Positions 1 through 12,079 of a stretch of DNA of 64,000 nt are shown here, piece by piece (the first letter of the stretch is position 1; every line of letters begins with the position of its first letter). Made by a program: the position numbers and the translations under genes. Source of the stretch: Candidatus Saccharimonadota bacterium (GTDB taxonomy: Bacteria; Patescibacteriota; Saccharimonadia; Saccharimonadales; UBA4665); NCBI GenBank assembly GCA_024635495.1, contig JAGXIT010000004.1, forward strand, positions 1 through 64,000, written 5' to 3'. The notes under the pieces were generated by a model, which was not told where the DNA came from, did no database searches, and saw only the letters and a program-made list of their open reading frames with translations.

Positions 1-1
1 C

Positions 2-3000
2 CTCACCATGAACATTGGTGGTACTGGCACTGTCGCCTCATGGGACGGAGAGATGGACCCAAGACTCAAGCTCACCGCTGTCCCATACGCCTTCAACGCC
101 AAGACTGCATCACAGCTCCAAACCAGCAACGGAGCCAACAACGCCACTCTCAGCATCCAATCTCCAACCGTTGGTAGCCAAACCTTCGTTATCCAAGACC
201 AGGGCGCAGCAGGGACCTACAACATCCTGACAGAAGGTGACATAGCCGGCACCTACATCAAGCTTCAAGCAACGTCTCCTGGTACTACTCAGACAGGGAA
301 CTTCAACATATCTGGCAGTGGTATAGCTGCAACCCTACAGGGTAGTACCTCAGTCCTCACCCCAACCCTCGACACCGCCACCGCCATAGCCCTCAACATT
401 GGTACTACCAACGCCACCAGCATCAATTTGAATGAAAACACAACCATTGCAGCAGGCAAGAGCATCACCTTTGCGGCCGGGTCTGGTACCTTCAATCAAT
501 CTGCGAGCACCGGCACCTTTGCGACCAGTACAGGGAGTGTCAGCCTAAACGGCAATACCACCGTCGCTACCAACAAGAGCTTCACCGCCAATGGTAGCGC
601 ACTATTCAAGAACGCTACAGACTCTACAGCTGGCTTGAGCGTACAAAACGCCGCAGGCACAAGCATACTCAATGTAAACACGACCGAGAAGTCTGTGAAT
701 ATAGGTACGGCAGTAAGCTATCCAGACTACGTCCTGGGTGTTGGCTTTGCTACAAAAGTTGACTACGCTACGGGCAGCGGTCCAAAATCCGTTACCACTG
801 CCGACTTCAACGGCGATACCTACCCAGACCTCGCCACCGCAAACAATGGAGGCAATACAGTCTCCATCCTTCTCGGCACCGGCACCGGGACTTTCGCCCC
901 TAAAGTCGACTATGCGACGGGCCAAACTCCAAACTCCATCACCACCGCTGACTTCAACGGCGACACCTATCCCGACCTTGCCGTAACCAACAATAACGCC
1001 AACACTGTTTCCGTTCTTCTCGGCAACGGTGATGGCACCTTCGCCGCCAAAGCCGACTACGCCAACAGTAGTTACCAATATTCCATCACCGCCGCTGACT
1101 TCAACGGCGACACCTACCCAGACTTGGCGGTGGTACGGGGTATTAATACGGGCGCTGTCTCCATCTACTTGAATAACGGCGATGGCACCTTTGCCCCCAA
1201 AGTAGACTACGCTACCACCGCCACCACATACTCCATCACCGCCGCTGACTTCAACGGCGACACCTATCCCGACCTTGCTACCGGTGATAGTAACAAGAAT
1301 ATTTCCGTTTATCTAAACAACGGCGACGGCACCTTCGCCGCCAGGGTTGATTACTTAACCTACAGCAATCTACAATCTGTCACGAGCGCTGATGTTGATT
1401 CTGACGGCAAGGTTGATCTTTTAGCCACCGCCGGTTCTAGCGGCAATTGGTTCTATATATATTATGGCAACGGCGATGGCACCTTTGGCTCGATGGCGTA
1501 TTATGCCACAGGCGCTAGCCCATACTCCATCACCACCGCCGACTTCAACGGTGATTCCAAGGTTGATATCGCCACAGCTAACAATAGCGGGTCTTCCGTT
1601 TCAATCATATTAAATAGTTATGCTGTTATATACACTACCCCTACGTTCTCTGAAACTATATCTGACCCCACTAAGGCGGGCTTCATCCTTCAGGCTGCTG
1701 CCGGCCAAACTGCAGACATCTTCCGCATCCAAGATTCCAATGCAACTGGCGCATACCTTGATGTCACCGCCAACGGCAATATCGGCATTGGCACCAGCAC
1801 CCCAACCCAGAAACTCGATGTCGCTGGCTCGGTTAACATTTCCAACAGCTTATATATAAACAGCACCAAACGTATCGACTCGAGCGGTAATCTACTTAAT
1901 ATAGGTAGCATCACTGCAAGCGGCCCAGTCCTCTTCAAGAACAGCACAAACAGTACTGGCGCCTTTGCGGTTCAGAACGCATCTGGCGGTATCGTACTCA
2001 GCGCAGATACTACCACCGACACGATAACGATAGCCAATCTAGCAGTAACCGGCAGCATAAGCCTGCCACACGGCGCTGACTTCAGTACCACGGGCTCTAG
2101 CGACGATGTTGACTTCGGCGTAGGCTCTCTATTCCGCTTGACGGGTGCTAGCGCTCAAACTATCACCGGTATCGCTGGCGGTACTGACGGTCGCATGGTT
2201 ACCCTCATGAATACCGCTGCACAGGATGCCACACTATCCAATAACTCTGCTAGCTCTCTGGCTGGCAACAAGATTACCACTGGCACAGGTTCTGACCTAT
2301 CTATCGCGGCCGGTGCGAGCGTCAGCCTGGTCTACGATAGCGTTTCTACTGTCTGGCGGGTGGTTGGCACTATATCTGGCGCTACCAGCGGCGGTAGCTA
2401 CATAACGCTCCAGGCAACGACTCCAGGTGTTGCAGATACTGGCAACTTCAACATATCCGGCAGTGGTATAGCTGCAACACTACAAGGGAGCACGTCAGTC
2501 CTCACGCCACTCCTCGACACTGCCTCGGCCACAGCGCTTAATATTGGTACTACAAACGCCACCAGTATTAATCTGAACGAGAACACAACCATTGCAGCGG
2601 GCAAGACCTTCACCGCCAACGGCAGTGCACTGTTCAAGAACGCTACAGATTCTACAGCTGGCTTGAGCGTACAAAATGCCGCAGGCACCAGCATACTTAC
2701 TGTAGATACGACTAATAAGAAGATAAGCGTGAATGGTGGGGCAACTTATACCCCTGCAAGCGTTTTGCCACAGCTACAAGCTAAGGTAGATTATGGTGTT
2801 GGAACAGCCCCTTCTAGTGAGATTAGCGGCGACTTCAACGGCGACACCTATGCTGACCTTGCCGTCACAAACTCCAGCTCAAATACAGTATCTGTGATGA
2901 TGGGGAATGGCGACGGCACCTTTGCCGCCAAAGTCGATTACGCCACGGGTTCTAGTCCACGCTCAGTCACCACCGCCGACTTCAACGGTGATACCTATCC

Positions 3001-6000
3001 AGACCTTGCCGTCGCAAACTCCAGCTCAAACACAGTCTCTGTCTTCCTTGGCACCGGCACTGGCACATTCGCCGTCAAGGTCGATTACGCCACCGGCACT
3101 AGCCCATACTCCGTCACCACCGCCGACTTCAACGGTGATACCTACCCAGACCTTGCCGTCGCAAACCAAGGCTCCAACACCGTCTCAATCCTCCTCGGCG
3201 CTGGCGATGGCACCTTCGCCGCTAAAGTCGATTACGCCACCGGTTCTCAGCCATACTCAGTCACCACCGCCGACTTCAACGGTGATACCTACCTAGACCT
3301 TGCGGTTGCTAATTACATCTCCAGTACTGTCTCCGTCTTTCTCGGTAACGGCGATGGCACTTTCAACACTAAGGTAGACTATGCTACGGCCACCTATCCA
3401 CAATCTGTCGTCACCACAGATCTCGACGGTGATACCTACCCAGATATCGTGACCGCAAACTACTTCACTAACATCTCTGTCTTAATGAACAACGGCGGTG
3501 GCACATTTGCGCCAAAAGTTGATTATGCCACCGCTGGTAACCAGTTACAGTCAGTTACTACCGCCGATCTCAATGGCGACACCTACCCCGATCTCGCTGT
3601 TTCAAGCTATAGCTCCAACAAGCTCTCGGTGTTTATCAATACCGGGGCAGGTGGTTTTAGCTCAAAAGTTGATTACACAGCCGGTACTCAGCCGTACTTC
3701 GTTACCGCTGCTGACTTCAACGGTGATACTTACCCAGACGTCGTAGTCGCAAACAGGGGCTCGAATAGTGTATCCATCCTTCTCAACACTGGCAACGCTA
3801 GCTCCCAGGTAACCGGTGCTATCTCTGCAGCATCGGCAAGCAATACACAATCAGCCTTAATAATAAAAGGTGCTGGTAGCCAACAAGTAGATTACTTCCG
3901 CGTGATGACTAGCGCCGGCTCACCACTACTTGTACTAGACTCTCAGGGTTATCTCGGACTCGGCACAGCTACCCCAACTCAACTTCTCGATGTAAACGGT
4001 ACTGCAAATGTGCTCAGTCTCAACACTAGTGGTACCCAGCGCATCGATAGCTCAGGCAACCTAGTTAATATAGCCGCACTTACCTTCAGTAATGCCGCTA
4101 ACCGTACTATATCTGTGGCGCAAGCCGCTTCTGGCGTAGGCAATAACCTATCCGTCATAGCAGGCCAGGGCGCTTCAGGCAGCGCAGGCGGTAACCTCGT
4201 CCTCCAGGCAGGTGCCAATGGCACCGCCAGCGGCACACCAGGCTCTGTTATCGTCAAGGCGAATGGCGGAGATAGCTCAAGTGCGTTCCAGGTCCAAAAT
4301 GCCAGCGGCACCGGTATATTGACCGTAGACTCTACAAACAAGACCGTAAATATTAATGGCGGCGGCACATTCAATGCGTATCGCCCAGGAGGGAGCTTCT
4401 CTGCTAGGGTAGAATATGGTACTACTAACCGTTACGTAAGTGTTCGTAATGCAGACCTGAATAATGATGGCGACCAGGATCTGGTTGTGATGGATACCTG
4501 GCCAAGTAGAATTCGAGTCTTTAATAACAACGGAGATGGTACTTTTGCGACCAGTGTTATATACAGTACTGCTGGGCAAGGTCAAGACGTGGCTATCGCA
4601 GATTTCAATGGCGATACCTATAAGGATATAGTCGCCACAGACGGTACCGCCAATAAGGTCTCGGTCTTTATGAATAACGGTGATGGCACCTTCGCCGCCA
4701 AAGTTGACTACACGACGGGTAGTAATGCCTACGGCACTATTGCAGGTGATTTCAACGGCGACACCTACCAAGACTTTGCCGTCACAAACTACGCCTCAAA
4801 TACAGTTTCTGTCTTCATAAACAACGGTGACGGCACTTTTGCGGCCAAAGCGGATTACGGGACTGGCAGCCAGCCTATCAGCGTAGCTACGGCAGACCTC
4901 AATGGCGACACCTACCCAGATTTAGTGGTTGGTAACAACGGAGCAAACTCAGTTTCAGTATTACTCAACAACGGCGACGGCACCTTCGCCACGAAAATTG
5001 ACTATGGGACGACTTCAAACTATCTACAGGATGTCGTTGCGGCCGACGTAAATGGCGATACCCATCCTGATATTATTGCCTCAGTCGGTAATTATGTATC
5101 CGTGCTCATCAACAACGGCGACGGCACCTTCGCCACAAAGGTCGACTACTCGGCTGGTAGTGCACCAAGACATATTGCGGTCGGTGATTTCAACGCTGAT
5201 GGTAGCCCAGATTTGGCATTATCTACCACTGGCAACATGGTCACCCTGCTAAACAACGGGGGAGGTGGTTTTGGGTCTCCTACAACCTATGCCGGACCAA
5301 CTTCATTGCCCGCCGGTGGCGCAGCGGCTGCCGATTTCAATGGCGACGGTACGGTAGATGTTGCTACCACCAACTGGTATCAGTTCAATACTTCGACGAC
5401 CACTATGTCGGTTTATCTTAATGGTGCTGAGCTTATCACGGTCTCTTCTGGGCTCACGGTAACTGCGCCAAGTGATACCCAGTCGAACCTCTTACTAAGG
5501 GGAGCCTCTGGACAGGTCGTAGACTATCTCCATGTGATGGATAGTAGTGGCGCGCAGTTGCTGAACATAAATTACAGCGGTGTCCTCAACGGCTACGTAG
5601 GCATTTCTACGCCAAACCTTGATACTATTAGTGCCAGCGCGCTCAATATAGGTACGACAAATGCCACGAGTATCAACATTAATCAGAACACCGTCCTTGC
5701 CGCCAACAAGTCCATCACCATCACCGGCGGCAACACTGCCTCCCGCCCAGGCTCACCAACCGAAGGTATGGTCTACTACGATACTACTACCAAGAAGCTT
5801 CTTACCTACGCCAACGGCAAATGGCAAGCAGACCGCACAGACGCTATCCTCGTCGCCGCTAGTGACTCCTCACAAGCAGACAAAGACGCTGCCGACTACG
5901 TCGGCGATGGTAACACTGCCGCAGCAGCTGATGGTGACCAAGTAGAGATAAACGCTGCTCTCACCGCAGCAAGCGGCAAGAAGGTCGTCCTCCTGGCTGG

Positions 6001-9000
6001 TACCTACACTGTAGATGCGTCAATATCTGTACCGAACAACACTACGCTTACGGGTGTTGGTAATGGCACAGTTGTAGAGCTTGCAGACTTAGGTGGCGCG
6101 AACGATACTCTCATCGAGAGCATTGACGCAAGTACGGGCACGGGCGTTGTTATTCGTGACATGAAGCTTGACGGACGGAACGACTTGAATACGACGGGGG
6201 CGCAGCAGGGAATGTATCTCAATATCAATGCTTTCAACGGAATCGGCGCGACTATAGAAAGCCTCTTTATTACTCGGTTTAGCGGTAGTGGCATCTACGC
6301 TTACTATACGAACTACAGTAATTTCACAAATAACACCATTACAGCTAACGGTGATAGGGGCATATATTTCTATTCTGGTAGTAACGACAACATTAACGGC
6401 AATACTATATTCGGAAATGCTAACGCGGGAATTGAGTTTTTGACTGGCACATCTACCAGGATTAGCAATAATAAAATATCTAGCAATGGAACCGGGGTTT
6501 ACCTCAATGCTGGTAGCGATTACAACAATATTGTTGGCAATGAGCTTTCCGGGAACGCCATATATACCAGTTCATCAGACAGCACAACGATCAGTGGAAA
6601 TACAATTAGATTTAGCGGTATTAATCTATCTAATTCTAAAGGAACTACTGTTGTAGGGAATAATATATATAATGCAACCAACTACTCCATATATATCTAT
6701 AATGGCTCTAGCTCCAATAGTGTCACCGCTAATAACCTCCAGAATAGTGGTGGCGCCACTACCAATAATGCTATCTACCTTGTTAGCGCAGACTCCAACT
6801 CTATCACTGGGAACTTCATTACCGACACCAGTGCCACCACCAACAACCTTGCCATCAATATATCCAACGGTACTTCAGACACCAACTACCTCGCTGACAA
6901 TACCCTCGGTGGTGGCAGCGTAAACGACGGCGGCACAGGTACTATCTATGGTGGCCAGCTCGATGGCTCAGATAACTATCTCGTTCAGCCGGCCGGTAGC
7001 ATCGAACTCCAGTCTGACACGAATGTCGCCGGTACCTTATCTGCTTCTACGGCCGTGCAGACACCATCACTCGACACGATAAGCTCCGGCGTCCTTACTA
7101 TCGGCGCCACGAATGCTACCAATATTCAGATAGGCAGCAATACTACCGACGCCACCGCTCATCTCTTCATCTTCGATAGCTACAATGGTGTATCAGACCC
7201 TACTGGTTACAACGGGGCTATGTACTACAGCACGAGCACTAATATGCTTAGGTGTTACCAGAACGGAGCCTGGGGAGGCTGTAGCGGAACAGGTACCGGA
7301 GTAGGTGGTAGTGGTACCTCTGGCCAAGTAGCTTACTTCAATAGCACGAGTAGTATTACGAGTAGCGCCAGCTTTACCTACGACTCAGGCACCAATACAC
7401 TTGCTGCCACTAACCTGCAGGGTAGTGGCGCGGGTATCACGGCTATAAACGGTACAAACATTTCAAGTGGCACTGTTGCGAATGCTCGTCTTACCGGCTC
7501 AGGTGCTCTCACGGTTACGGCCGGCAACGGCTTAACCGGTGGGGGCAGTGTTGCTCTCGGTGGTAGCACTAGTGTCGCAGTTGGGGCAGGTAGCTGTATC
7601 ACGGTTGCTAGTACTAGTGTTTCGGTTACGAGTAATTGTGTTGATGCCACAACCCTAGACTCGTTAGACTCATCGCAGTTTATACGTAGTGACGCTGACG
7701 ACACAACAATAGGACGGCTTATTATGGACGATACATCTAATGGTGATTCTTATGGCGCAGCCCCTCTCGAGATAAGGCAGAGCTGGTCGAGTGGCACGGG
7801 TGATGCACCGCATATCTCGTTCCATTATAGTGGTGCAGTTGCATCGCAAATTGGTTTTCTTAAGGGGGACAATTCGGGTGACATCTCTATTCTAGATAAC
7901 CCAGGAACGGGTTACGAAACACTGCGCGTGAGAGACTTAAAGCTTGGTGGAACTCAGATAATCACGAGTGGCGGAGCACTCCAAAATGTAACTGCCAGTG
8001 CTAGCATAATTACATCGGGCACCCTTAGTGATGCCCGCCTTAGCTCAAACGTCGCACTGCTCAATGCTACCCAGACATTCACCGGCGCCAACACATTTGA
8101 TGCAAGCCTAAATGTGAATGGTGACATCATAGCATCCGGTACTTCTGGTCTCACTGTTGGGCGTGGTGGCTTCTATTCTGGATATCGCTCAGTTTTTCAG
8201 GGTGTTAATGGTAGCCTGCCACTGTTGGTGCTCAATGGGACAACAACTGGGGCGGTTACTGTTATTGGCATTGGTCAAAATGGTGCTGTTGCCGGAACGA
8301 TTAGTGTTAGTGGGGGTACCACTTCCTATAATGCTTTTACTGGTTCGCACTACGCCACGCTTGCGCCAGGTACTAGTGAGCCGGATATGGCTAAGCTGAT
8401 GTCATTTGCTGGTAATGCCACTGAGCAAATGAATGGTAACGGTGAAATAATATATCCAGTCAAGGAGAATCAGATAGCGAACGATCCGAAGGCGTTTGGT
8501 TCGTTTAATGGTTCAACTGACGCGGGCACCCCAGATAAGTACCCCGAAGGCTCGCTATATCTTATCTCGGCCGCGGGGAATGGCACCGTCTGGGTAGCAG
8601 ATAATGGATCCGGTAATATTGCGACGGGTGAGCCGCTTATTTCAAGCACTCTAGCTGGCTACGCTATGCGAGATCCAGGTACCTACCAGACGAGCCACGT
8701 ATTCGCCAAGGCGGCGCAGAACATAGACTGGAACACTGTCAGTAAAACAACCAATGGCGTAAAAGTAGCCAAGCTCAGTATCTTGTACAGCTACTATGAT
8801 CAAGACAACACCTTTGCTGTGATGCAGGCTGCCGGTAAACTAACTATCAATACTCTCAGTGCCTCGAGTATCACCACAACCGCCCTCACAACCGGTACAA
8901 TCACCGTGAATGGTAATGCTAGCTTCTCTGGCAATGTCGTGGTCGCTGGCACGCTCAAAACCGGTGATATTTATGTGAACGGGCACATAGTGACGAAGGG

Positions 9001-9343
9001 TGCTATACCAACCGCTACGATTGGTACTGCACTCGGTGCTGGTGTACTCGGCGATAGTACAACCGACCCAGTTATCGCAAATGATGGTACCGACGGGGCG
9101 GGCACCATTACGGTCACTGCTGGCTCTAATGATGTCACAGACGGAGTGCTCGCTCATGTCACCTTCGCCAAGGCCTACGGCCAATCGTTCAAGGTCACCA
9201 TAAGTGCGCTCAACAAAGACACGTCGTACTTGCACCTGTATGTGAATCAAACCAGTGACGGATTCGATATCGTATCTGGTGACGCGCTCAATTCGGGCAC
9301 GCAGTACAAGATAAATTACCTCGTCTTGGGCGCACAGCAATAG
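2..9343 (+). CDS. Giant surface/adhesin-like protein, 5' partial
   Basis: The frame is open to the window edge, and the first visible residues (MDPRLKLTAVPYAFNAKTA) resemble the end of a conserved N-terminal module, so the true start lies upstream. More than 3,110 residues are visible, rich in Ser, Thr, Asn, Gly and Ala. Counting from the ATG at 8: propeller block 1 about 250-540 (6 repeats), block 2 about 924-1261 (7), block 3 about 1463-1811 (7), each repeat with a DFNGDTYPD-type calcium loop (FG-GAP/VCBS). A pectate-lyase-like right-handed beta-helix follows at about 1947-2290. Between blocks lie tail-fibre-like modules (GIGTSTPTQKLDV; LDT..ALNIGTTNATSINL four times). No sortase signal or C-terminal membrane segment is visible. 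By family precedent these are extracellular adhesion or ligand-binding folds; a role in host or surface attachment is inference. The export signal would lie outside the window. Confidence 0.85.
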   Translation, partial: LTMNIGGTGTVASWDGEMDPRLKLTAVPYAFNAKTASQLQTSNGANNATLSIQSPTVGSQTFVIQDQGAAGTYNILTEGDIAGTYIKLQATSPGTTQTGNFNISGSGIAATLQGSTSVLTPTLDTATAIALNIGTTNATSINLNENTTIAAGKSITFAAGSGTFNQSASTGTFATSTGSVSLNGNTTVATNKSFTANGSALFKNATDSTAGLSVQNAAGTSILNVNTTEKSVNIGTAVSYPDYVLGVGFATKVDYATGSGPKSVTTADFNGDTYPDLATANNGGNTVSILLGTGTGTFAPKVDYATGQTPNSITTADFNGDTYPDLAVTNNNANTVSVLLGNGDGTFAAKADYANSSYQYSITAADFNGDTYPDLAVVRGINTGAVSIYLNNGDGTFAPKVDYATTATTYSITAADFNGDTYPDLATGDSNKNISVYLNNGDGTFAARVDYLTYSNLQSVTSADVDSDGKVDLLATAGSSGNWFYIYYGNGDGTFGSMAYYATGASPYSITTADFNGDSKVDIATANNSGSSVSIILNSYAVIYTTPTFSETISDPTKAGFILQAAAGQTADIFRIQDSNATGAYLDVTANGNIGIGTSTPTQKLDVAGSVNISNSLYINSTKRIDSSGNLLNIGSITASGPVLFKNSTNSTGAFAVQNASGGIVLSADTTTDTITIANLAVTGSISLPHGADFSTTGSSDDVDFGVGSLFRLTGASAQTITGIAGGTDGRMVTLMNTAAQDATLSNNSASSLAGNKITTGTGSDLSIAAGASVSLVYDSVSTVWRVVGTISGATSGGSYITLQATTPGVADTGNFNISGSGIAATLQGSTSVLTPLLDTASATALNIGTTNATSINLNENTTIAAGKTFTANGSALFKNATDSTAGLSVQNAAGTSILTVDTTNKKISVNGGATYTPASVLPQLQAKVDYGVGTAPSSEISGDFNGDTYADLAVTNSSSNTVSVMMGNGDGTFAAKVDYATGSSPRSVTTADFNGDTYPDLAVANSSSNTVSVFLGTGTGTFAVKVDYATGTSPYSVTTADFNGDTYPDLAVANQGSNTVSILLGAGDGTFAAKVDYATGSQPYSVTTADFNGDTYLDLAVANYISSTVSVFLGNGDGTFNTKVDYATATYPQSVVTTDLDGDTYPDIVTANYFTNISVLMNNGGGTFAPKVDYATAGNQLQSVTTADLNGDTYPDLAVSSYSSNKLSVFINTGAGGFSSKVDYTAGTQPYFVTAADFNGDTYPDVVVANRGSNSVSILLNTGNASSQVTGAISAASASNTQSALIIKGAGSQQVDYFRVMTSAGSPLLVLDSQGYLGLGTATPTQLLDVNGTANVLSLNTSGTQRIDSSGNLVNIAALTFSNAANRTISVAQAASGVGNNLSVIAGQGASGSAGGNLVLQAGANGTASGTPGSVIVKANGGDSSSAFQVQNASGTGILTVDSTNKTVNINGGGTFNAYRPGGSFSARVEYGTTNRYVSVRNADLNNDGDQDLVVMDTWPSRIRVFNNNGDGTFATSVIYSTAGQGQDVAIADFNGDTYKDIVATDGTANKVSVFMNNGDGTFAAKVDYTTGSNAYGTIAGDFNGDTYQDFAVTNYASNTVSVFINNGDGTFAAKADYGTGSQPISVATADLNGDTYPDLVVGNNGANSVSVLLNNGDGTFATKIDYGTTSNYLQDVVAADVNGDTHPDIIASVGNYVSVLINNGDGTFATKVDYSAGSAPRHIAVGDFNADGSPDLALSTTGNMVTLLNNGGGGFGSPTTYAGPTSLPAGGAAAADFNGDGTVDVATTNWYQFNTSTTTMSVYLNGAELITVSSGLTVTAPSDTQSNLLLRGASGQVVDYLHVMDSSGAQLLNINYSGVLNGYVGISTPNLDTISASALNIGTTNATSININQNTVLAANKSITITGGNTASRPGSPTEGMVYYDTTTKKLLTYANGKWQADRTDAILVAASDSSQADKDAADYVGDGNTAAAADGDQVEINAALTAASGKKVVLLAGTYTVDASISVPNNTTLTGVGNGTVVELADLGGANDTLIESIDASTGTGVVIRDMKLDGRNDLNTTGAQQGMYLNINAFNGIGATIESLFITRFSGSGIYAYYTNYSNFTNNTITANGDRGIYFYSGSNDNINGNTIFGNANAGIEFLTGTSTRISNNKISSNGTGVYLNAGSDYNNIVGNELSGNAIYTSSSDSTTISGNTIRFSGINLSNSKGTTVVGNNIYNATNYSIYIYNGSSSNSVTANNLQNSGGATTNNAIYLVSADSNSITGNFITDTSATTNNLAINISNGTSDTNYLADNTLGGGSVNDGGTGTIYGGQLDGSDNYLVQPAGSIELQSDTNVAGTLSASTAVQTPSLDTISSGVLTIGATNATNIQIGSNTTDATAHLFIFDSYNGVSDPTGYNGAMYYSTSTNMLRCYQNGAWGGCSGTGTGVGGSGTSGQVAYFNSTSSITSSASFTYDSGTNTLAATNLQGSGAGITAINGTNISSGTVANARLTGSGALTVTAGNGLTGGGSVALGGSTSVAVGAGSCITVASTSVSVTSNCVDATTLDSLDSSQFIRSDADDTTIGRLIMDDTSNGDSYGAAPLEIRQSWSSGTGDAPHISFHYSGAVASQIGFLKGDNSGDISILDNPGTGYETLRVRDLKLGGTQIITSGGALQNVTASASIITSGTLSDARLSSNVALLNATQTFTGANTFDASLNVNGDIIASGTSGLTVGRGGFYSGYRSVFQGVNGSLPLLVLNGTTTGAVTVIGIGQNGAVAGTISVSGGTTSYNAFTGSHYATLAPGTSEPDMAKLMSFAGNATEQMNGNGEIIYPVKENQIANDPKAFGSFNGSTDAGTPDKYPEGSLYLISAAGNGTVWVADNGSGNIATGEPLISSTLAGYAMRDPGTYQTSHVFAKAAQNIDWNTVSKTTNGVKVAKLSILYSYYDQDNTFAVMQAAGKLTINTLSASSITTTALTTGTITVNGNASFSGNVVVAGTLKTGDIYVNGHIVTKGAIPTATIGTALGAGVLGDSTTDPVIANDGTDGAGTITVTAGSNDVTDGVLAHVTFAKAYGQSFKVTISALNKDTSYLHLYVNQTSDGFDIVSGDALNSGTQYKINYLVLGAQQ

Positions 9344-9988: not shown

Positions 9989-10104
9989 GGGTATATGAAT
10001 AAATAGAGCTTGGTCGTGGCCGATTATTATGAAAAATACCTGCGTTTACTAGGGTGCCGAAATCTGTTACGCTTAAGGGTAGAAAAAGGGGAAACAAAAC
10101 ACCA

Positions 10105-10866
10105 ATGGCACTGGTACTCGCTATTACCAATCAGAAAGGCGGCGTCGGCAAAACGACGACAGCCGTGAATCTTGCTGCCTTGCTCGCAACGAGCAAACGT
10201 CGAGTAGTACTAGTTGACCTTGACCCCCAAGCGAATGCCACCAGTAGTCTCGGACTTGAAAAAGACAAGCTTAAGTATACGCTCTACGATGTATTGCTCG
10301 GCAAGGCGACCGTGAAAGATACGATTCAATCGACCGGCCGCAAGAATCTCTTTGTGCTGCCGGCAAGCGCTGAGCTTGCACAGGCTGAGGTGGATCTTGT
10401 AGGTGTGACGCGCCGTGAGTATCAACTAGCCGAGGCTATTAGTGCGATTAATGCCGATATCATTATCATCGACTGCCCGCCAGCACTCGGGCTACTGACT
10501 ATCAATGCTCTTACGGCTGCAGAGGGTGTGCTCATACCAGTGCAGGCAGAATACTTTGCGCTCGAGGGCTTGAGTCAACTACTCCAGACGATTCATCTCG
10601 TGCGCCAAGGCCTCAATACTCACCTCAAGATATTTGGTGTCGTACTGACGATGTTCACCAAGCGCACTGTACTGAGCGAACAGGTAAAAAAAGAGGTGGA
10701 GCAGCACTTTGGACAGCAGTTATTCAAGACTGTGATACCGCGCAACATCAAACTAGCAGAAGCACCAAGCTACGGAAAAACCGCTGCAGAGCATGATAAA
10801 TGGAGCAAGGGAGCTCGTGCCTACAAAGCCTTGGCTGCTGAGGTCTTAGAGCGCGCCGAACTATAG
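10105..10866 (+). CDS. parA: ParA/Soj chromosome-partitioning ATPase
   Basis: A 253-residue Walker ATPase that drives chromosome or plasmid segregation with ParB. The deviant Walker A (NQKGGVGKTT), the VDLDPQANAT motif and the IIIDCPPALGLLT Walker B are intact, and the length is normal for Soj-type ParA. I start at ATG 10105 because Soj proteins begin a few residues before the P-loop; AAAGGGG lies about 13 bases upstream. An in-frame GTG at 10054 would add 17 basic residues. The gene converges on parB 222 bases downstream instead of forming the usual parAB operon, and it is bracketed by palindrome copies 2 and 3. Confidence 0.93.
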   Translation: MALVLAITNQKGGVGKTTTAVNLAALLATSKRRVVLVDLDPQANATSSLGLEKDKLKYTLYDVLLGKATVKDTIQSTGRKNLFVLPASAELAQAEVDLVGVTRREYQLAEAISAINADIIIIDCPPALGLLTINALTAAEGVLIPVQAEYFALEGLSQLLQTIHLVRQGLNTHLKIFGVVLTMFTKRTVLSEQVKKEVEQHFGQQLFKTVIPRNIKLAEAPSYGKTAAEHDKWSKGARAYKALAAEVLERAEL

Positions 10867-11088: not shown

Positions 11089-11949
11089 TTAGCGATTAAG
11101 CTCGTCGAGTATTCGCTGGAGTTCATCGTCAGACTTGAAAACTATCTCCAGTCGTCCGCCCTTCGCACTACGGTGTAACTTGATAGCAGTACCATACCGT
11201 TTGCTCAACAGTTTCGTCTCAGGCGTTTCGGTTGCTGCTCGTGCGACAGTTTCCTTTTTGCCAGTCACCCCTTGTTTTATAGAGGTAACATATCGCTCTG
11301 CCTGACGGACATTCCAGCTCTGTGCAATAATCAATTTGAGCAATTCATCCTGCAAATCTGGCGTATCTTTGAGGGCGAGGATTTGGCGGGCGTGTCCTTC
11401 GCTGATATCCCGAGCGGCGAGTGCTTCTCGTGCTGGTTTTGGCAATTGCAGTAAACGCACGATATTGCTGATAGTCGTCTCGGCCTTGCCAAGTCTTGTG
11501 GCAATTTGATTGTAGTTCAGGTTGAATTGATCGTGTAGACGTGCGATTGACAGTGCTTGTTCGAGCGGGCTGAGATCGACACGCTGGACGTTTTCGATGA
11601 TGGCGATTTCGAGTCGCTCGAGCTGCTGAGTGCTGCGCACCACCGCTGGTACGGTCTTGAGGCCTGCCTCTTGAGCTGCGCGCCACCTTCGCTCACCAGC
11701 GACGATGATATATGTTCCTTCGTGAGGGCTAACCACGAGCGGTTGCACGATACCGTGTCTGCGAATGCTTGCTGCAAGCTCAGCGATGGCAGCCGCATCA
11801 AATACTGTGCGGGGTTGCTCTGGGTTTGGCTGTAAATCGCTAATCTTCAGCTTCTCTATACGCTCACCCGATTCTACAAGTGCATTTGTATCAAAATCTT
11901 GCGGTATAAGAGAGCCAAGGCCCCTGCCGAGTCCGGATTTACTTCCCAT
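11089..11949 (-). CDS. parB: ParB/Spo0J partition protein
   Basis: A 286-residue CTP-dependent DNA clamp that loads at parS and works with ParA. The N-terminus has the family signature GLGRGLGSLIP. The ParB/Srx CTPase domain follows (LQPNPEQPR; GERRWRAAQEAGL, with the GERR box), then the helix-turn-helix (YNQIATRLGKAETTISN) and a short C-terminal dimerisation region. ATG 11949 is chosen because GGGAG stands 5 bases upstream; two in-frame GTGs precede it directly. The gene is convergent with parA. I saw no canonical parS in the window. Confidence 0.95.
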   Translation of the reverse strand: MGSKSGLGRGLGSLIPQDFDTNALVESGERIEKLKISDLQPNPEQPRTVFDAAAIAELAASIRRHGIVQPLVVSPHEGTYIIVAGERRWRAAQEAGLKTVPAVVRSTQQLERLEIAIIENVQRVDLSPLEQALSIARLHDQFNLNYNQIATRLGKAETTISNIVRLLQLPKPAREALAARDISEGHARQILALKDTPDLQDELLKLIIAQSWNVRQAERYVTSIKQGVTGKKETVARAATETPETKLLSKRYGTAIKLHRSAKGGRLEIVFKSDDELQRILDELNR

Positions 11950-12079
11950 CACCACTCCCGTTTTTATTCATACATATATACTAGCATGAAGAAGATGGAA
12001 GCTGGAATATAGATAAGCAGAATGCTATTGAATGAGATTTATGGACTATGAAGGCTTCATGGCAAAAGAAGGTTATAAG

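What the first reader, a model, noticed from the sequence alone, without database searches (positions are those of the whole stretch)
2..9343. Giant protein with three 6-7-repeat propellers, a beta-helix and fibre modules
Three separate blocks of 6, 7 and 7 FG-GAP repeats (20 in all) are visible, each block close to the seven blades of a classic integrin-type propeller. Each is preceded by near-identical linker modules (LDT..ALNIGTTNATSINL; LFKNATDS..VQNA), and one beta-helix follows block 3. The near-identical repeat DNA (the DFNGDTYPD units) suggests recombination between modules and easy gain or loss of blades. A large multi-propeller surface fibre would suit attachment to a host cell in a parasitic CPR bacterium.
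Basis: partly seen in the sequence, partly recalled or inferred. Interest (0 to 1): 0.65.

Follow-up and report, generated by a model that had tools for sequence, protein, structure and literature searches.

The report
Giant Saccharibacteria surface fibre, three propellers
The window starts inside the gene for a very large exported fibre protein of a tiny parasitic bacterium (Saccharibacteria) that carries one six-bladed and two seven-bladed propeller domains related to lectins that grip the cell wall of other bacteria, so it is probably a host-attachment fibre of a kind already known in outline.

Summary
ORF 2..9343(+) has 20 FG-GAP repeats in blocks of 6, 7 and 7, then a right-handed beta-helix. 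The ORF is cut by the contig edge; its missing start lies on the left end of contig C4 with a signal peptide. The two ends hold complementary halves of one N-terminal domain, the only copies in the genome. AlphaFold2 with an alignment models block 1 as a confident propeller of 24 strands, six blades (pLDDT 84.5, pTM 0.84). The closest solved structures by profile are Streptomyces umbrella-toxin lectins (UmbA4, E=1.7e-21), then CRTAC1, PVL and integrin alpha. Variation between blades is concentrated in the two loops that form the sugar pocket in such lectins. Relatives occur in Saccharibacteria at one place, between rplU and parA, with very different middles. Best reading: an exported adhesive fibre that recognises glycans on a host bacterium; binding itself is inferred.

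The parts
2..118 (+). C-terminal part (model positions 95-133) of the N-terminal NLNFQARL...LTAVPYAF domain; the rest (model 2-29, preceded by a signal peptide) is at G000:C4:1-282, strand -
   Evidence: L022, L023 and G001 hold the two parts in one frame
247..691 (+). First linker/fibre module (LDTATAIALNIGTTNATSINL ... LFKNATDSTAGLSVQNA)
   Evidence: DNA 80-82% identical to 2392-2719
743..1621 (+). Propeller block 1, six FG-GAP repeats (residues 248-540), modelled as six four-stranded blades
1622..2770 (+). Fibre modules between blocks 1 and 2, with GNIGIGTSTPTQKLDV and the second copy of the linker at 2392-2719
2771..3793 (+). Propeller block 2, seven FG-GAP repeats (residues 924-1264)
   Evidence: profile hits to propeller lectins and integrin alpha
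4391..5425 (+). Propeller block 3, seven FG-GAP repeats (residues 1464-1808), the most diverged
6227..6607 (+). Right-handed parallel beta-helix (residues 2076-2202)
   Evidence: Pfam Beta_helix 3.5e-14; region shared with L100 (36% over 514 aa)
8897..9340 (+). C-terminal domain (residues 2966-3113), shared with the gene beside parA in genus mate G004 (52% over 147 aa)
10054..10866 (+). parA, the conserved right-hand neighbour of the fibre locus in the genus

Best explanation
This is one giant exported surface protein (3113 residues in the window plus about 94 residues on contig C4 and about 50-60 lost in the assembly gap) of a Saccharibacteria species. A Sec signal peptide takes it out of the cell. 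A conserved N-terminal domain and repeated fibre modules form the shaft. One six-bladed and two seven-bladed calcium-binding FG-GAP propellers and a beta-helix are carried along it as binding heads. The propellers most likely work as lectins: the calcium loops and core hold each blade together, while two loops per blade, which differ from blade to blade, form glycan-binding sites, so that many weak sites on one fibre give strong and selective attachment to the wall polymers of a host bacterium. The locus is fixed between rplU and parA, but its modules are swapped between species, as expected for a part that follows the host. Shown: gene, export signal, repeat blocks, fold of block 1 (model), locus position, module turnover. 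Inferred: trimer or other fibre assembly, calcium, glycan binding, host attachment.
For: 20 of 20 repeats keep the DxNxDxxxD-type loop. Block 1 modelled at pLDDT 84.5, pTM 0.84, 24 strands; Foldseek PDB matches are propellers, UmbA4 among the best with the highest sequence identity, 22%. Profile search: UmbA4 1.7e-21, a second umbrella-toxin secreted esterase chain 4.7e-17, CRTAC1 1.7e-14, PVL 1e-12, AAL2 4e-10, integrin alpha-V 7e-08. UmbA4 is a six-bladed propeller that binds teichuronic acid of an actinobacterium, with conserved calcium loops and divergent pocket positions (PMC13274773); blade variability here has the same pattern: mean entropy 2.55 bits in the connecting segment and 2-3 loop, 1.20 elsewhere. 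Export signal and single-copy N-terminal domain. Same architecture on one contig in the complete genome CP023991.1 (L105: signal, N-terminal domain, fibre, one FG-GAP block, then a kelch gene and parA). A lectin-like VCBS protein is essential for epibiotic growth in a cultured Saccharibacterium (PMC10633639).
Against: The GlcNAc pocket residues of PVL/AAL2 (Trp, His) are missing and the connecting segment is shorter (PMC4483166), so no ligand can be named. No cell-wall anchor or C-terminal membrane segment was seen, so the protein might be released. FG-GAP propellers also serve non-glycan roles (integrin, CRTAC1). Only 37 of 393 class members have any FG-GAP_3 match, so this head is optional. 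Loop variability alone does not prove binding.
Confidence: 0.62

Rival explanations
1. A structural surface coat or cell-to-cell fibre: the propellers are rigid spacers in a sheath, without a specific ligand.
For: Very long Thr/Gly/Ala/Ser-rich protein with fibre modules; related genes at the same place without any Pfam-recognised propeller (G001, 2115 aa, no Pfam match); no pocket signature of a known lectin.
Against: Variation is concentrated in the two loops that line ligand sites in lectins; module turnover at one locus between species fits recognition better than a constant coat.
Confidence: 0.2
2. Glycan-degrading or effector-carrying secreted protein: propellers and beta-helix target an activity to the host wall.
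For: A right-handed beta-helix is also the fold of many polysaccharide lyases (general knowledge; Pfam match); FG-GAP-like propellers occur as targeting modules in antibacterial toxin particles (PMC13274773).
Against: No catalytic or toxin domain in Pfam or NCBIfam scans; no sequence match of the beta-helix region to a solved enzyme.
Confidence: 0.1
3. Prophage tail fibre or tailspike.
For: Fibre motifs such as NIGIGTSTP; weak match of the C-terminal region to phage spike proteins (E=0.002).
Against: Signal peptide; no match of the C-terminal 747 aa in 50,697 phage records; no informative PHROG hit; locus conserved between the housekeeping genes rplU and parA.
Confidence: 0.04
4. The C4 and C5 ends belong to two different genes, so the protein in the window has an unknown N-terminus.
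For: The joining piece of about 50-60 residues is not in the assembly; some class members carry several genes with this domain.
Against: The two ends carry complementary halves of the domain (model 2-29 and 95-133) and no other copy exists in a 99.8% complete genome; six of seven genus members start such a gene beside rplU.
Confidence: 0.06

Closest known systems
Umbrella-toxin lectin UmbA4 (6-bladed propeller) of Streptomyces (PDB 9oee; PMC13274773)
   Same: Best profile match of the propellers (1.7e-21); six blades as in block 1; conserved calcium loops with divergent pocket positions
   Different: No trypsin-like N-terminal domain or particle context here; several propellers on one long fibre; ligand unknown
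PVL/AAL2 fungal lectins (PDB 2bwr, 4tqj; PMC4483166)
   Same: FG-GAP-like seven-bladed propeller with calcium loops; the NNGDGTF segment is shared
   Different: GlcNAc pocket residues Trp/His and the longer connecting segment are missing
Integrin alpha propeller and integrin-type bacterial propellers (PMC3192720)
   Same: FG-GAP repeats, calcium loops, seven repeats in blocks 2 and 3; profile match 7e-08
   Different: Strict cage motif absent in all 20 blades; block 1 has six repeats
Giant surface proteins of Vampirococcus, another CPR bacterium (PMC8080830)
   Same: Very large surface proteins, some with integrin domains, proposed for host recognition and attachment
   Different: This family has its own N-terminal domain and a fixed rplU-parA locus in Saccharibacteria
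Fibre proteins of CP023991.1 (L105) and JAQGGW010000001 (L079, L080), Saccharibacteria
   Same: Signal, same N-terminal domain, fibre, FG-GAP propellers
   Different: 7 and 14 blades instead of 20; a kelch gene lies beside them, which this genome lacks

Membership tests
FG-GAP_3 repeat family (PF13517) | Repeats above the Pfam gathering score | tested here: met
   485 bits for the protein, cut-off 26.9, 20 stretches
Beta-propeller fold | Ring of four-stranded blades | tested here: met
   Block 1: 24 strands, pLDDT 84.5, pTM 0.84; propeller matches in the PDB.
Integrin alpha-type propeller (PMC3192720) | Seven repeats | tested here: inconclusive
   Blocks 2 and 3 have seven, block 1 six
Integrin alpha-type propeller (PMC3192720) | FG-GAP/Cage motif (aromatic-aromatic-G-aromatic, X13-20, P, X2-15, G) in every blade | tested here: not met
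   0 strict matches in 20 blades
Integrin alpha-type propeller (PMC3192720) | DxDxDG-like calcium loop | tested here: met
   DxNxDxxxD or DxDxDxxxD in 20 of 20
PVL/AAL2 GlcNAc lectins (PMC4483166) | Pocket Asn, Gly-Gly-Trp and His in the connecting segment | tested here: not met
   No GGW...H in the blades; 3 Trp and 2 His in the three block regions together
UmbA umbrella-toxin lectins (PMC13274773) | Homologous propeller lectin domain | tested here: met
   Profile E=1.7e-21 and 4.7e-17
UmbA umbrella-toxin lectins (PMC11062931) | N-terminal trypsin-like domain | tested here: not met
   No such domain by Pfam in the window protein or in the 94-aa N-terminal piece
Saccharibacteria NLNFQARL fibre family (defined here) | Signal peptide plus NLNFQARL...LTAVPYAF domain | tested here: met
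   the middle of the domain lies in the assembly gap
Sortase-anchored surface adhesins | C-terminal sorting signal and membrane segment | tested here: not met
   C-terminus ends ...KINYLVLGAQQ with no hydrophobic segment
Saccharibacteria host adhesins | Binding to a host cell or glycan | not testable with these tools
   Needs protein or mutants

The most novel reading that the evidence does not exclude
The rplU-parA interval is a dedicated host-range locus of Saccharibacteria in which exported fibres with interchangeable propeller heads (none, FG-GAP of 6 or 7 blades in 1-3 copies, kelch) are swapped between species, and the FG-GAP heads recognise actinobacterial wall polymers with the same kind of lectin domain that Streptomyces uses to aim its umbrella toxins.
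Probability: 0.28. Interest if true: 0.68.

Novelty: new member of a known kind. Interest (0 to 1): 0.42.

Why it matters
How Saccharibacteria choose and hold their hosts is largely open; pili and a few glycan-binding proteins are implicated (PMC10633639, PMC12206443). This locus gives a named, conserved place in the genome and a modular protein with propellers of a lectin family whose bacterial-wall ligand is known in one case, so host recognition becomes testable with purified domains. The protein itself is not a new kind of object.

Tried and rejected
AlphaFold2 on block 1 without an alignment gave pLDDT 37.8 and was discarded. A single-sequence PDB search with block 2 found nothing; profiles were needed. 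I first recalled AAL2 as six-bladed; the paper says seven (PMC4483166), so that argument was dropped. The weak matches of the C-terminal region to small toxin B subunits (E 0.1-0.7) are chance level and were not used. A 25,790-residue frame in G015 is an artefact: 72 of the 100 kb fetched are masked N. Recent blade duplication was rejected for most blades. A first search of named genomes with alignment A1 failed and was repeated with A2. No Rfam family and no tRNA in the window.

Full report
Observation. The open frame 2..9343 on the + strand has 3113 codons and runs off the start of the window. Pfam finds 20 FG-GAP_3 stretches (5.3e-149) and a beta-helix (3.5e-14); FG-GAP_3 occurs nowhere else in this 820-kb genome. 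A blade HMM places the repeats in blocks of 6, 7 and 7 at residues 248-540, 924-1264 and 1464-1808.

The missing N-terminus. The window starts at base 1 of contig C5. Of the other contig ends, C4-left carries a frame that runs off the end with '...RSAAVFLLLSLPLFFLTRVPTPAYA|ATTDNLNFQARLQTGAGSIAPDGYYNVEFKL', a signal peptide and the start of a domain that in genus mates continues to 'LTMNIGGT..WDGEM.PRLKLTAVPYAFNAKTAS', which is where the window begins. A profile of this domain finds in the genome only these two complementary pieces, model positions 2-29 and 95-133. So one gene is split by a gap of roughly 50-60 codons; the join itself is inferred.

Locus. C4 beyond the N-terminal piece holds rplU and ileS; the window holds parA and parB after the fibre gene. 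In the genus the same N-terminal domain starts beside rplU in six of seven genomes, while the seventh contig ends too early, and large surface genes lie beside parA. In G001 the interval is intact, 20.7 kb, with a 2116-residue frame of this family without propellers and a 2241-residue kelch-repeat frame. In the complete genome CP023991.1 the order is rplU, fibre gene with seven FG-GAP repeats, kelch gene, parA. A named-genome scan found 55 loci with the domain, deposited as Candidatus Saccharibacteria or as unclassified bacteria/Patescibacteria; about 23 have a kelch-repeat gene nearby and 18 have rplU just upstream. The domain occurs in 90 of 295 genomes of the class, any FG-GAP_3 match in 37 of 393. 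This genome has no kelch match by protein or family search, while G001, G002 and G005 do. BLAST between the window protein and relatives shows shared ends or modules with unrelated middles: a mosaic.

Fold. Without an alignment the model was useless. With 24 rows from the window and relatives, block 1 is predicted at pLDDT 84.5 and pTM 0.84 with 24 strands, that is six four-stranded blades. Caveats: seven-repeat rows were trimmed to six for the alignment, and ring closure could not be inspected. Foldseek returns propellers, at TM 0.5-0.67, so it supports the fold but does not settle the blade number. Blocks 2 and 3 were not modelled.

What the propellers resemble. By profile the nearest solved structures are two umbrella-toxin secreted esterase chains (UmbA4 9oee 1.7e-21; 8w20 4.7e-17), then CRTAC1, PVL, AAL2 and integrin alpha-V. 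UmbA4 is a six-bladed lectin that binds teichuronic acid of Streptomyces griseus; its calcium loops are conserved and its pocket positions diverge between blades (PMC13274773). [quoted passage not shown] no other pair of contiguous four-column segments reaches this); in AAL2 these two segments form the sugar pocket (PMC4483166). The exact column limits were set with the data in view, and loops vary in general, so this is supporting evidence only. The AAL2 Trp/His pocket and the integrin cage motif are absent.

Repeat evolution. Blade DNA identity is 34-86%; four-fold sites are close to chance agreement except among blades 2-4 of block 2. Linker copies are 80-82% identical. Fourteen of 20 blades have their nearest relative in the same protein (one blade was taken out of register there). 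This indicates growth within the gene and some homogenisation, mostly old, rather than current recombination between near-identical units.

Mechanism and limits. The most likely function is attachment of the parasite to a host bacterium through many glycan-binding sites on one fibre. Precedents: giant surface proteins in Vampirococcus (PMC8080830) and an essential lectin-like VCBS protein in a Saccharibacterium (PMC10633639). Assembly as a trimer, calcium binding, the ligand, the host and the way the protein stays on the cell are not shown; no C-terminal anchor was found.

Verdict. A real and well-formed example of a known kind, with three features worth keeping: propellers of two sizes in one protein, kinship to lectins that bind actinobacterial wall polymers, and a fixed locus with exchangeable modules.

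Noticed in passing
window 10054-10866 (+) and 11089-11955 (-): parA and parB are convergent here, while in genus mates G002 and G004 they point the same way; L102 is also convergent. parB alone seems to have been inverted.
   Followed up: partly
G001:C4 (L044), L105:14752-19605, L047:2-2062: A very large kelch-repeat propeller gene commonly lies beside the fibre gene in Saccharibacteria and is missing in this genome. The gene pair looks like a unit worth a study of its own.
   Followed up: partly
G000, G002, G003, G004, G005 and G006 assemblies at the fibre gene: Most assemblies of the genus break inside or just before this gene's N-terminal region, which could reflect strain variation downstream of a conserved start.
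   Followed up: no
L083 (G146) 72-4875 (-): A fibre plus FG-GAP gene with at least 20 repeats is split into overlapping frames (863 and 755 aa), which suggests a frameshift or an assembly error.
   Followed up: no
G000:C1 left end (L009): Another exported protein (signal peptide, truncated after 228 codons) is cut by a contig end.
   Followed up: no
window 1-4000: GC skew is -0.19 here, while nearly all the rest of the window is mildly positive, and GC is high (0.53): probably a composition effect of the Thr/Asn/Ala-rich repeat coding.
   Followed up: no
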